Positions 5,201 through 8,188 of a DNA stretch of 12,717 nucleotides are shown here, piece by piece. Below the pieces are notes generated by a model. The model ran no database searches, was not told where the DNA came from, and saw only the letters and a program-made list of their open reading frames with translations. Both the position numbers and the translations under genes were made by a program. Position 1 is the first letter of the stretch. Every line of letters starts with the position of its first letter. Origin of the DNA: Acidobacteriota bacterium (GTDB lineage Bacteria > Acidobacteriota > Blastocatellia > RBC074); assembly GCA_013140935.1 (NCBI GenBank), contig JABFSD010000588.1:1-12717 (forward strand), written 5' to 3'.

Positions 5201-8188
5201 GCGTATATTACGGCGTATCTCTATGATGCTTTAGATAACTTGGTGCAAACCATCCAAGCCGGGAAACAGGGCACGCCGCCCAATCTTACGACGGTTTTGC
5301 AATTGCGTACCTTTGAATATGATTCTGTGAAGCGGTTGGTGAAAGCCACAAATCCTGAGAACGGGGTCACCAAGTATACCTATGACAACAATGGTAATTT
5401 GAAGACAAAGGAGGACGCCCGCACTGCAAAAGTGACTTTCTCGTATGACGCGCTTAATCGCGTGACACAAAAGATATATGATGGCACAACCACTGAAGGC
5501 GTTAATGCCAAGAATGCAACGCCGAGTGTTTTTTACAAGTACGACAACCAAACTTTGCCGGGCACGCCGCCCATCACTTTCAATCGCGGCCTTGCGTTAG
5601 GGCGATTGGTATCGGCAACGTACGGCACTGTTAGTGACCGAAAAGGCAGCTATTACGGGTACGATGAGCTAGGGCGAGTAGTTCGCAAAACTCAGCAAAT
5701 TGATAATAGCCCTTATTCAATTACCGCAAATTACAATCGCGCCGGGGCTATGCTTAGCGAGACTTACCCTTCTGGCCGAACAGTCACCTATACCTACGAT
5801 GCGGCGGGTAGGGCAACCAGTACTGTTGGCACAATAGGCGATGGCACAAGCAGAAGTTATACTTCCGGCATTAACTACAATGTTACGGGACAGTTGACCA
5901 AAGAAACCTGGGGTACCACACAACCCCTTTACCATCGGCGTTATTACAATAACCGTTTTCAGCTTTTTAACATGCGGGTCGGAACTGATTCCAGCACTGT
6001 CAATGACACCAATAATTCCAGCGCCTGGACGATGGCATCGCAAGATCGCGGTTCGTTTATGTGGTATTACAACTACAACTCAGCCGCCAACACTTATGCC
6101 ATCGGAGACGGCGGTATGAATAACAACGGCAACGTGTGGTGTAGCGCCAACTATGTTCCCTTGAATAATACTGGTTCATGGGTCTCAATGAAAGACGCTT
6201 ACAAGTATGATCCGTTGAATCGAATTACGGAAGCTAAAGAAGAAAGCGGTGGCAGCACAACGCCTTCTCCCCTTATCCCTTACACGCAAACGTATGAATA
6301 CGACCGTTTCGGAAATCGTAAAATCTCAACAGGTACCTTTGGCAGTATAAATGGCTTTGCATTATCTTTTGACAAGGCGAGCAATCGGATTAACTCAAGT
6401 GGTTACGACCACGATTCAGCGGGTAATCTCAACATGGATACAGGGCAATCACGTACCTACGACGCAGAAAACCGTATGGTGAGCGCGGCAGGCGGAGGTT
6501 CTAATACTTACGTTTACGATGGCGAAGGGAAACGAGTGAAACGGACACCAGCAGGAGTTGAAGAATGTTGGTACGTTTACGGTATCAGCGGTGAATTGCT
6601 CGCAGAGTATGGCGTAGGGGCAACATCCACGGTGGTAAAGAAAGAATATGGCTATCGTAACGGACAGCTTTTGGTAATCGCAGATAACCAAACCCTGATC
6701 AATTTGTCTCAAGGTCAGTTCACGCAACAATCAAGTACTACTGCTCTTTGGGGAGGCGGTGCGTCAAGTCGGGCAGTTGACGGGAATACCAGCGGTGTCT
6801 GGTCAAATAATTCCGTTACTCATACGGATGCTACGAATTCCGCCAACCTGATTCAACCCTGGTGGGAAGTGGATTTAGGTGCAGTGAAAAACATTGCCAA
6901 CATCAACATGTGGAACCGGACAGATTGCTGTGCGGCTCGCCTGTCCAACTTTTATGTCTTTGTGTCGGATGCGCCTTATACTTCGACGAACCCAACGACG
7001 ACGCAGGGGCAGGCCGGTGTGAGCAGTTATTATACGGCAGGGCAAGCTCCGACGACGTTGACATTGACCGTGAATCGTACCGGGCGATATGTTCGTGTGC
7101 AGTTGACCAGCACCACCGAGCCGTTGTCGCTCGCGGAAGTGCAAGTGATGGGGGTTGGTGCAACAACAGACATGAAATGGCTGGCAACTGATCACCTAAG
7201 TTCGACGCGAATGGAAATCGGCCAGACAGGTACTTTAGCAAGTGTCGTCCGACATGATTACCTCCCCTTTGGTGAGGAATTAGCACCAACGGTCGGAGTC
7301 AGAGCCACAAATGGGTCGGGTTATATAACCACTTCGACTCGTCAAAAATTTGGCGCCTATGAACGTGACAATGAAACTGGACTGGATTTTGCGCAGGCGC
7401 GGTATCACAGCAATATGCAGGGGAGGTTTACATCTCCAGATAACCCCCTCGTAGACCAAGATCTCACAGATCCTCAGAGTTTGAACCTATATTCTTATGT
7501 GAGAAACCGACCGCTTGCTCATACTGATCGGAATGGACGCGCCTGCTACAACGGCAATTCAGGAAGTGGTTATTGTAAACGTGCCGCAGAGTACAGAAAC
7601 TACGATGCCGACCCGGCAGTCAGAGAAAAAACCCGGTTCTTTGCAGCAGCAGCAGTTGTTTCCGAAGTCAATGCTACCGGAGATCCGCAAATATCAAGTT
7701 CAGTAGCTGGAACAATAATAGGGGGAGCTGCCGTGCTTGGTCGTAAGGTAATATCGATTTCAGGTTCGACACATAGCGCCTTATCATCAATAGGCCAAGA
7801 ATTACAAAAGTTAAATGCTACCGCTGTCCAAGATATTCGCGACGGTAAGTTAGGTGGGCCAGACCTTGATGCGAAATTAGTCCACCTGGAACAATCCGCA
7901 GTTCAAGGGCAACTTGATAACCTTAAGAAAAGCGATATTGGAAAATACAACACACTGATTAATGAAACAAATAGCATATTAAACCCGTCGGGCCTTACAT
8001 TGCTTGGTACAAAAAGGTACTCTACAGATAGCGCTTTTGTTACAAAAATACTTGACCCTGTTCGAAAACAACTTGGGGGTAACATTGATTTTTCTAACCA
8101 ACAGCACCGTGAACTGATAGGGAATACTCTCGTAAAATACATAAGAGATGGAGGGTGCGATGTAGGCACAATAAGTGGATGCAAGTAA
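2210..8188 (+). CDS. Sec-exported Rhs/YD-repeat protein with F-type lectin domain and polymorphic C-terminus
   Basis: Giant 1992-residue protein of the Rhs/YD-repeat (WapA/TcC-like) superfamily, whose members form a hollow shell enclosing a C-terminal effector. Order of parts: Sec signal peptide (1-31; basic RLSRN, hydrophobic core, cleavage after VGA); a beta-rich N-terminal part opening with VDPVTLALNIKIDLAELPGR and typical of secreted Rhs proteins; a YD-repeat array about 809-1490 (YDGLGR, YDALSR, YDALNR, YDELGR, YDAAGR, YDPLNR, YDRFGNR, YDAENR, YDGEGKR); an inserted F-type lectin domain about 1498-1648; the conserved Rhs core about 1655-1777 (WLATDHLSSTRM, DYLPFGEE, GLDFAQARYHSNMQGRFTSPD, LNLYSYVRNRPLAHTDRNG); and an unrecognised tail 1778-1992. 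The signal peptide argues for Sec export and surface exposure rather than T6SS loading, and no T6SS gene is nearby. The next gene overlaps its stop and probably encodes the cognate immunity protein. Toxin activity is inferred from architecture only. Confidence 0.93.
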   Translation: MFTFTKPSNRLSRNVVYICLFSFLLTTSVGAQQTTGKRYTTTAEDYNKRSSFEVDPVTLALNIKIDLAELPGRGTGLPVTLNYNSKLWRVSHYQTRINNQGEVGSYLLRAVYSEKSRAGWTTNLGMPRIERLFDTEKYVARFTSSANNSPYAPGEPDHGKPYDSEFPPVNPQNGPQGLSYFSNRAMIYMPDGSSHEIRQDDLVTLNNAGDANRMYYAVDGSQIRYNPVTKTIFMPDGSRYNLILNAQYQTVSGNYIDRNGNTYNYTNGDWTDTLGRSIGNPLGNTYCASCDWGLLDAHYGVSYWFIRWNTLDQVRDNPNQPLQYVGGTTRVPGSNPATFSYTSPSLFYRTGLGLATNTIGEVETENPFNAGTPPLFNPKVMSEIELPNGKKFQFKYNEYGEIVKIILPSGGYRRYRYDFIPSIDANSQGIDAYSQSNRGVVEAWESETGTLAGENPVSWKYEVVSSGGFYVKATAPDGTYTKRFPILQPSGSQFGSNYGDVIVGKVYAEQAFDASGQMLRRVLSQWNYSGAQNHPPIEQWTINNPIGMERASRNPYLERQVEVIMDPNGTPIAKATVFQYDGDLNRTNALYYGYKPVSSLSMAQTGTLLQITGTGGANLFDSFNLLKSEEVTYIVNETNAVLPQAGRDAYRALNMIGLVSTTRVKDGSGTVRAQSQIKYDEGGAYDIIPYTGITVTGWINPGTGVKRGDPTTVRNWVHVDGVGAPPDIWIETHAQYDQCGNVCKTWDGEGNMTQTSYVDSYDDNTNHLTYAYPTQVTSPGPALTTKTKYNFNTGKVKETLDANNIKTRYEYLDSLMRPTKEVRGDGTSLVNQTAFSYNDTDRVITVVTDRDANLDGILQSKTMYDGLGRTWRTTSLHGSGQWSITDTEFDVFSRVKRTSNPYLAAVTTGSINPSGVWATNTYDALSRTISVQTPDNATVTTAYDGVRVMVTDQAGKKRISETDALGRLIKTCEVTNNNTDPEVSTIAFPGLAAAESYAYITAYLYDALDNLVQTIQAGKQGTPPNLTTVLQLRTFEYDSVKRLVKATNPENGVTKYTYDNNGNLKTKEDARTAKVTFSYDALNRVTQKIYDGTTTEGVNAKNATPSVFYKYDNQTLPGTPPITFNRGLALGRLVSATYGTVSDRKGSYYGYDELGRVVRKTQQIDNSPYSITANYNRAGAMLSETYPSGRTVTYTYDAAGRATSTVGTIGDGTSRSYTSGINYNVTGQLTKETWGTTQPLYHRRYYNNRFQLFNMRVGTDSSTVNDTNNSSAWTMASQDRGSFMWYYNYNSAANTYAIGDGGMNNNGNVWCSANYVPLNNTGSWVSMKDAYKYDPLNRITEAKEESGGSTTPSPLIPYTQTYEYDRFGNRKISTGTFGSINGFALSFDKASNRINSSGYDHDSAGNLNMDTGQSRTYDAENRMVSAAGGGSNTYVYDGEGKRVKRTPAGVEECWYVYGISGELLAEYGVGATSTVVKKEYGYRNGQLLVIADNQTLINLSQGQFTQQSSTTALWGGGASSRAVDGNTSGVWSNNSVTHTDATNSANLIQPWWEVDLGAVKNIANINMWNRTDCCAARLSNFYVFVSDAPYTSTNPTTTQGQAGVSSYYTAGQAPTTLTLTVNRTGRYVRVQLTSTTEPLSLAEVQVMGVGATTDMKWLATDHLSSTRMEIGQTGTLASVVRHDYLPFGEELAPTVGVRATNGSGYITTSTRQKFGAYERDNETGLDFAQARYHSNMQGRFTSPDNPLVDQDLTDPQSLNLYSYVRNRPLAHTDRNGRACYNGNSGSGYCKRAAEYRNYDADPAVREKTRFFAAAAVVSEVNATGDPQISSSVAGTIIGGAAVLGRKVISISGSTHSALSSIGQELQKLNATAVQDIRDGKLGGPDLDAKLVHLEQSAVQGQLDNLKKSDIGKYNTLINETNSILNPSGLTLLGTKRYSTDSAFVTKILDPVRKQLGGNIDFSNQQHRELIGNTLVKYIRDGGCDVGTISGCK
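6701..7153 (+). other. F-type lectin (fucolectin-like, F5/8C fold) domain within the Rhs protein
   Basis: Residues about 1498-1648 of the Rhs protein. They show the F5/8C-type signature ASSRAVDGNTSG followed by WWEVDLGAV and NRTDCCAARLSNFYVFVSD, and end in GRYVRVQL and LSLAEVQV. The fucose-binding pattern of F-type lectins, HX(26)RXDX(4)R/K, is present with a longer first spacer: His1538, then 31 residues, Arg1570-Thr-Asp1572, four residues, Arg1577. The adjacent Cys1573-Cys1574 matches the vicinal cysteines of eel-type fucolectins. The D-G-N after AV resembles the calcium-site loop. The domain sits between the last YD repeat (GYRNGQLLV) and the Rhs core, so it is likely exposed as a sugar-recognition module. 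Fucose specificity is inferred. Confidence 0.85.
7541..8185 (+). other. Variable C-terminal domain of the Rhs protein, candidate toxin
   Basis: Residues 1778-1992 follow the end of the Rhs core (HTDRNGR), the point where Rhs proteins switch to interchangeable effector domains. I do not recognise the fold. Visible: two Cys near its start (CYNGNSGSGYC), a helical REKTRFFAAAAVVSEV stretch, a Gly/Ala-rich hydrophobic segment at 1829-1844 (SSSVAGTIIGGAAVLG), long helices (QELQKLNATAVQDI; LVHLEQSAVQGQLDNLKK), and a conserved-looking end with NQQHRELIGNTLVKYIRDGG plus Cys1983 and Cys1991. No nuclease (HNH, PD-(D/E)XK) or ADP-ribosyltransferase motif stands out. The hydrophobic segment and the membrane-protein neighbour hint at a membrane-acting toxin, which is speculation. 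Confidence 0.6.

What the first reader, a model, noticed from the sequence alone, without database searches (positions are those of the whole stretch)
6701..7153. F-type lectin domain grafted into a Sec-exported Rhs protein
The Rhs shell is interrupted just before the conserved core by a domain with the fucose-binding pattern of F-type lectins: His1538, R-T-D at 1570-1572, vicinal Cys1573-Cys1574, Arg1577. In known polymorphic toxins receptor recognition is a separate module. Here a sugar-binding module next to the effector capsule could direct the protein to fucosylated or similar surface glycans of rival bacteria, algae or host cells. The His-to-Arg spacer is 5 residues longer than the canonical 26, so specificity may have drifted.
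Basis: partly seen in the sequence, partly recalled or inferred. Interest (0 to 1): 0.78.

Follow-up and report, generated by a model that had tools for sequence, protein, structure and literature searches.

The report
Sugar-binding module in Rhs shell slot
A large secreted bacterial protein of the Rhs kind carries a fucose-lectin module in one particular loop of its shell, and in related proteins that same loop holds many different, repeatedly exchanged modules, so it looks like a plug-in site for surface recognition.

Summary
Residues ~1501-1652 of a 1997-aa, apparently exported Rhs protein are an F-type lectin domain, with the fucose triad (His1543, Arg1575, Arg1582) and vicinal cysteines present. 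The premise that receptor recognition is a separate module in polymorphic toxins is not: lectin domains embedded among RHS repeats were described in 2012.

The larger finding is the site. The lectin fills one loop just before the Rhs core. In 37 Rhs frames from the same class that loop is either 6-12 residues (14) or a 126-474-residue insert (23), nothing between. Inserts are F-type lectins (2), other F5/8C domains (9), PA14 (1), laminin-G-like (1), DUF4214 alone (3) or without Pfam match (7). On a tree of the neighbouring shell, slot contents change at least 22-23 times. In 40 slot F-type lectins both arginines are invariant and the histidine is kept in 38. C-terminal tails vary too. I read the slot as an exchangeable decoration site, largely for glycan recognition, on a tail-carrying shell. 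Glycan binding, toxicity, outward orientation and the exchange mechanism are inferred; structure prediction never ran.

The parts
2195..8188 (+). Rhs protein, 1997 aa (P0001)
2195..2302 (+). Sec-type signal sequence, residues 1-36 (by eye)
   Evidence: no predictor run
6644..6682 (+). Shell strand on the 5' side of the slot, EYGYRNGQLLVIA (residues 1484-1496)
   Evidence: same strand in lectin-less Rhs of the same genome
6680..7174 (+). Slot insert, 165 residues (1496-1660), where short-loop relatives have 6-12 residues
6695..7150 (+). F-type lectin domain, residues ~1501-1652
6821..6823 (+). His1543 of the fucose triad
6917..6940 (+). Arg1575-Thr-Asp-Cys-Cys-Ala-Ala-Arg1582: two triad arginines and vicinal cysteines
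7178..7213 (+). Shell strand on the 3' side of the slot, WLATDHLSSTRM (1662-1673)
7259..7537 (+). Rhs core (TIGR03696, 1689-1781), with Arg1744, Asp1749 and Asp1778 at the aspartyl self-protease positions
7538..8185 (+). C-terminal tail, ~216 residues, no relative found
8179..8595 (+). Small gene overlapping the Rhs stop, with several hydrophobic (membrane-like) stretches; candidate immunity gene
1376..2122 (+). Upstream gene, 248 aa, recurrent neighbour of Rhs genes in this family

Best explanation
The protein is a Sec-exported Rhs shell protein with a probably self-cleaved C-terminal tail. It carries an F-type lectin domain in a dedicated loop (slot) between a late shell strand and the Rhs core. 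In this bacterial class the slot is a decoration site into which modules, largely of glycan-binding families, have been inserted and exchanged many times while the shell stayed homologous. The module most likely stands outside the shell and attaches the protein to glycans bearing fucose or a similar sugar on a neighbouring cell or matrix, bringing the tail to its target. Shown: domain identity, exact shared site, diversity and repeated change of contents, conserved triad, selection on the lectin sequence in a sister gene, variable tails. Inferred: export and self-cleavage, outward orientation, glycan binding, that the tail is a toxin, targeting as the purpose.
For: F-type lectin by Pfam and by solved relatives. 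Same loop in 20 of 20 Rhs+F-type-lectin proteins, with 1 copy (window), 3 copies (P0039, own genome) or 2 copies (18 others). Loop length in 37 Rhs frames: 14 at 6-12 aa, 23 at 126-474 aa. A second measure on 64 of 82 cores: 46 short, 18 at 150-503 aa, none at 50-149 (18 cores without the anchor motif dropped). Contents by Pfam, all 21 other inserts scanned: F5/8C 9, PA14 1, laminin-G-like 1, DUF4214 only 3, no match 7. Control: elsewhere in up to 700 aa of upstream shell, 1 of 44 rows has an inner insert of 40 aa or more. Tree of 52 shell rows: 23 changes over 14 states, 22 over 13 states with F-type lectins merged; F-type lectins alone need 11 changes, all forced by starred branches. 40 slot lectins: Arg 40/40, Arg 40/40, His 38/40, putative Ca2+ ligands 40/40 each. 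The C1096 slot holds three 453-bp tandem copies. Copies 1 and 2 differ at 25 of 447 bases, yet all 5 residue changes lie in the linker: the lectin part, from NLALN on, is identical in protein with 14 silent codon changes, so it is under selection (1 against 3: 54 silent codons, 22 changed). Tails: of 32 compared, apart from one duplicate entry, only 2 pairs are alike. The core aligns to RHS2/YenC2 cores.
Against: No structure was obtained, so orientation and pocket are unproven. Among the 20 Rhs+lectin proteins scanned, the families besides RHS repeats and F5/8C domains were DUF7402 (9 of 20), DUF6443 and DUF3238 (2 of 20 each), none a known toxin; the window's tail matched nothing, so 'toxin' rests on architecture. 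Of 23 inserts, 7 match no Pfam family and 3 are DUF4214 only, so the slot is not purely for sugar binding. 18 of the 52 tree rows were listed because they carry the lectin. 2 of 40 slot lectins lost the histidine. Another shell hairpin can take an insert too (L180). Only 1 of 80 named F-type-lectin loci is an Rhs protein by my flank profiles, so the fusion may be confined to one class; Rhs cores of other phyla were too diverged to measure.
Confidence: 0.6

Rival explanations
1. Permissive loop: the hairpin loop merely tolerates insertions, and mobile sticky modules common in this genome land there without a function for the Rhs protein.
For: The genome has 10 PF22633 matches on 5 contigs, also outside Rhs, and C1096 shows plain tandem duplication.
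Against: Triad arginines kept 40/40. Copies 1 and 2 in C1096 differ only silently inside the lectin (14 codons). In the 36-row clade the slot is filled in every row, including the 18 not chosen for the lectin. Elsewhere in the upstream shell 1 of 44 rows has an insert.
Confidence: 0.15
2. The protein is an adhesin or surface/matrix protein rather than a toxin; slot and tail both vary because surface proteins diversify, and the lectin anchors the producer to polysaccharide. (Not exclusive with the other readings of what the lectin binds.)
For: No recognised toxin domain in the window's tail or in the 20 proteins scanned; Sec-type N-terminus; F5/8C modules occur in many other large proteins.
Against: Core with residues at the self-protease positions of Tc toxins, variable tails and an overlapping gene for a hydrophobic protein fit a polymorphic toxin better.
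Confidence: 0.2
3. The lectin binds the producer's own envelope sugars and holds the protein on the cell surface, as PMC3482391 proposes for laminin-G and SH3 domains of other toxins. (Not exclusive with the adhesin reading.)
For: Precedent in passages of PMC3482391.
Against: [quoted passage not shown] Repeated exchange of contents suits changing targets better than a fixed own surface.
Confidence: 0.2

Closest known systems
F-type lectins (AAA 1k12, FBP32 3cqo, S. mitis PAF 3le0, fucolectin-related 2j1r)
   Same: Homologous over the whole domain; His-Arg-Arg triad aligned in the printed alignments; vicinal cysteines as in 3cqo domain 1.
   Different: Spacer 31 instead of 26; the domain sits in an Rhs shell loop. 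13 of the 20 Rhs+lectin proteins have a form R-[VA]-[ED]-x-x-E-R without the cysteines.
Rhs/YD polymorphic toxins with embedded discoidin, RicinB or bulb-lectin domains (Zhang et al. 2012, PMC3482391, passages seen)
   Same: Glycan-binding domains embedded among RHS repeats or near the toxin; contact with targets already proposed.
   Different: The passages seen describe no single exchangeable loop, no two length states, and no F-type lectin, PA14 or DUF4214 there; they name firmicutes, actinobacteria, proteobacteria and bacteroidetes, not Acidobacteriota. The whole paper was not read.
Mosquito SGS1 (PMC9935623, passages seen)
   Same: CBM and lectin-like domains inserted in the Rhs/YD sequence and decorating the outside of the shell.
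   Different: Ig-like folds at 1345-1494 and 1575-1715, far upstream of the core, whose putative cleavage site is at 2733-2734; here the insert ends about 120 residues before that site.
CdiA modular receptor-binding domains (PMC5371414; only title and start of abstract in a search listing seen)
   Same: A contact toxin in which recognition and toxic tail are separate modules.
   Different: Not homologous; CdiA is not an Rhs shell (recalled).

Membership tests
F-type lectin | Sequence homology to the F-type fold family | tested here: met
F-type lectin | Basic triad His-Arg-Arg (AAA His52, Arg79, Arg86; PMC5712786 passages) | tested here: met
   aligned; His1543, Arg1575, Arg1582
F-type lectin | Canonical spacing HX26RXDX4(R/K) (formula recalled) | tested here: not met
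   31 residues between His and Arg in the window; its RXDX4R part is met. Elsewhere: 13 of 20 slot proteins show no RXDX4(R/K), only the shortened form
F-type lectin | Calcium-site residues (positions recalled) | tested here: inconclusive
   D, N, S and E conserved 40/40; binding itself not testable
F-type lectin | Jelly-roll fold with the triad in one pocket | not testable with these tools
F-type lectin | Binds fucose | not testable with these tools
   needs a binding assay
Rhs polymorphic toxin | YD/RHS repeats and Rhs core | tested here: met
   PF05593, TIGR01643, TIGR03696
Rhs polymorphic toxin | Aspartyl self-protease residues in the core | tested here: met
   Arg1744, Asp1749, Asp1778 read by eye against RHS2 and YenC2; criterion from PMC9935623. 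Cleavage itself not tested
Rhs polymorphic toxin | Variable C-terminal tail on a conserved shell | tested here: met
Rhs polymorphic toxin | Tail is a toxin domain | tested here: inconclusive
   no Pfam match
Rhs polymorphic toxin | Cognate immunity gene downstream | tested here: inconclusive
   overlapping ORF 8179-8595, found only in the own genome of 162, like the tail

The most novel reading that the evidence does not exclude
Rhs proteins of this Acidobacteriota class have two variable sites on one shell: the known C-terminal tip, and a single shell-loop slot into which glycan-binding and other modules are exchanged cassette-fashion. What the protein binds and what it carries would then evolve separately.
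Probability: 0.5. Interest if true: 0.76.

Novelty: new variant of a known kind. Interest (0 to 1): 0.62.

Why it matters
How secreted Rhs proteins without a type VI spike recognise their targets is, to my knowledge (recalled), largely open. A defined loop with exchangeable, recognisable modules makes the question directly testable: predict the ligand from the slot module and test it on a glycan array. It would also give a natural catalogue of which domains an Rhs shell tolerates, and a first hint at a role for DUF4214.

Tried and rejected
Structure prediction (A1: the window protein from residue 830 with 19 relatives) never ran, so no fold search was possible; jelly-roll, pocket and orientation are argued from sequence only.

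The tail was searched against 5.8 billion proteins (of 2453 candidates none at E <= 0.001), 162 class genomes (own genome only) and Pfam (none), so the toxin type is unknown. Rhs cores in 15 genomes of other phyla (10 of 15 with a match) were too diverged; of the ten loci L262-L271 my motif caught only one. A tree of 163 lectin domains was poorly resolved and cannot say where the window's lectin came from. One search covered a wrong 20-residue piece and means nothing. My self-protease regex missed 20 of 53 entries; a looser look at 9 of those 20 showed the motif by eye in 6, so misses are not absences.

Considered and rejected: chance motif (E-values and full-domain homology); assembly artefact (a second Rhs gene of the same genome and 18 database proteins share the site); drifted specificity from the longer spacer (no evidence either way).

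In print: searches of the held PMC subset listed nothing on an exchangeable slot or on F-type lectins in Rhs proteins. That library lacks most subscription journals, listings were judged by title and abstract start, and I saw only passages of three papers.
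Full report
1. The observation. The window is one contig (G000:C128) of a 6.1-Mb incomplete genome. ORF 2195-8188 encodes a 1997-residue protein with RHS/YD repeats and an Rhs core. Residues ~1501-1652 match PF22633 and PF00754. Against solved structures they match F-type lectins only: FBP32 1.4e-26, S. mitis PAF 6.6e-19, fucolectin-related protein 2.3e-16, the 1k12 lectin 8.7e-12. In the printed alignments (four, five) the triad His1543, Arg1575, Arg1582 falls on the corresponding residues of the solved lectins; that with 1k12 was not printed. 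PMC5712786 (passages) gives His52, Arg79 and Arg86 as the fucose-contacting triad of eel agglutinin.

2. Organism. Two genomes of the window's own class have contigs of exactly the length of named records: G314:C12 21,618 bases (L073, Acidobacteria bacterium 13_1_20CM_3_53_8) and G075:C32 175,722 bases (L121, Acidobacteria bacterium RYN_26). The window is therefore very probably from Acidobacteriota. Source names of several relatives are Pyrinomonadaceae, so the class is probably Blastocatellia (inference).

3. Same loop every time. Two protein searches (the best 120 listed in each, of 2348 and 2911 hits) showed 19 Rhs proteins with this lectin besides the window. In 20 of 20 the lectin lies between the strand EYGYRNGQLLVxA and the strand WLVxDHLGTPRM or close variants. 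The window has one copy, P0039 three, the other 18 two. Lectin-less Rhs proteins of the same genome have only a short loop there. The three copies in C1096 are a 453-bp tandem array, so copy number changes by duplication. Copies 1 and 2 differ at 25 of 447 bases; all 5 residue differences are in the leading linker, and from NLALN on the proteins are identical despite 14 silent codon changes. Between copies 1 and 3 there are 54 silent and 22 changed codons. The lectin sequence is thus held by selection.

4. The slot. A search with the Rhs core alone (starting after the lectin) hit 106 of 162 genomes of the class. I fetched 54 stretches at places of its list (6 further stretches came) and used the loci it returned and stretches already held; I did not look at every listed place, and its list was itself cut. 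37 frames had both flanks recognised by separate profiles; each of these 37 cores stands in the list. Their loops are 6-12 residues in 14 and 126-474 residues in 23, nothing between. A second measure on 64 of 82 cores gave 46 short, 18 at 150 or more, none at 50-149. Pfam on all 21 non-F-type inserts: F5/8C in 9 (single, tandem, with DUF4214 in L176, or after an unknown stretch in L185), PA14 in 1 (L223, 2.7e-25), laminin-G-like in 1 (L212, 5.8e-21), DUF4214 only in 3, nothing in 7. Among those 7, three are alike helical-looking repeats and a fourth has that repeat behind an FN3-like stretch (my reading). With the 2 F-type cases, 13 of 23 inserts belong to families with glycan-binding members (family knowledge recalled). 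Control: in up to 700 residues of upstream shell, 1 of 44 rows (20 of them lectin-carrying proteins P0001, P0039, P0122-P0139) has another inner insert of 40 or more residues (L180).

5. Repeated exchange. I built a maximum-likelihood tree from ~330 residues of shell upstream of the slot, insert excluded: 52 rows, of which 34 genome rows and 18 database proteins listed because of the lectin. Slot contents need 23 changes over 14 states (shuffled mean 33.8, none of 200 as low). With both F-type subtypes merged they need 22 over 13 states (shuffled mean 29.1), F-type lectins alone 11, all forced by starred branches. Well-supported neighbours differ completely: L191 unassigned versus P0137 F-type (100/98), L184 F5/8C versus P0130 F-type (100/100), L212 laminin-G-like next to P0123/P0138 F-type (99/99). 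In a 36-row clade every slot is filled, including the 18 genome rows. The other 16 rows have 12 short loops and 4 fillings, among them the window and C1096. Labels are partly clustered, so exchange is frequent but not random. Recombination inside the shell could mimic some changes and was not tested.

6. Is the module functional? In 40 slot lectins from the 20 proteins both arginines are 40/40, the histidine 38/40 and four putative calcium-site residues 40/40 each. Two subtypes exist: RTDCCxxR, and a form one residue shorter without the cysteines. A similar short form stands in domain 2 of the solved FBP32. The window's copy alone has 5 extra residues between His and Arg. Insert ends are richer in Gly+Ser than their bodies (0.31 against 0.19), as flexible tethers would be. 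Together with the SGS1 precedent this makes display outside the shell likely, but it is not shown.

7. The rest of the protein. The core aligns with RHS2/YenC2 cores (E 0.00021 and weaker), and residues stand at the self-protease positions (Arg1744, Asp1749, Asp1778; criterion from PMC9935623). Of 32 tails compared (some cut by the end of the fetched stretch), apart from one duplicate entry, only 2 pairs are alike. The window's tail has no relative in 162 genomes or, among proteins of 0.55-1.75 times the whole protein's length, in the protein database. An ORF with several hydrophobic stretches overlaps the Rhs stop codon (8179-8595), is also unique among 162 genomes, and lies, like the tail, in lower-GC DNA (0.40 and 0.43 against 0.47 for the shell). 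This fits a toxin-immunity pair but proves nothing. 14 of 19 N-termini printed show a hydrophobic signal-like start (by eye); the other 5 begin elsewhere.

8. What is known. [quoted passage not shown] PMC9935623 (passages) shows carbohydrate-binding-like domains inserted in the shell of SGS1 and standing outside. The idea of lectins in Rhs proteins is therefore not new. What I did not find in print is one defined loop with two length states and exchanged contents.

9. Verdict. The exchangeable slot is the part worth following. Best mechanism: an outward glycan-binding module on a tail-delivering shell (0.6; the rivals overlap with it and with each other in part, so the odds do not sum to one).

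Noticed in passing
window 1376-2122: 248-aa protein with an N-terminal hydrophobic stretch directly upstream of the Rhs gene; of 7 places matched in 5 of 162 genomes, 4 (window, own C34, own C639, G421:C51) lie just upstream of an Rhs reading frame, a possible secretion or assembly partner (C639 by the coordinates).
   Followed up: partly
window 2-1008: Two pieces matching an IS1634-family transposase on the minus strand (the shorter piece weakly, below the family cut-off).
   Followed up: no
   Followed up: partly
L180: A 166-residue insert in a different shell hairpin, so the slot is favoured but not the only site.
   Followed up: partly
L196, L220, L225, L211 slot inserts: Repeats of the form IKAAHxxELR, no Pfam match; L211 has them behind an FN3-like stretch.
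   Followed up: partly
L237, L187, L190, L176 slot inserts: DUF4214 domains in the Rhs slot, alone or after an F5/8C domain.
   Followed up: partly
L054 (own genome C765) and G197:C17: Several Rhs cores in short frames on one contig, some with tails but little shell, like displaced tip cassettes.
   Followed up: no
P0123, P0124, P0126, P0128-P0131, P0133, P0134, P0136-P0139: 13 Rhs proteins whose slot F-type lectins have a motif one residue shorter and no vicinal cysteines.
   Followed up: partly
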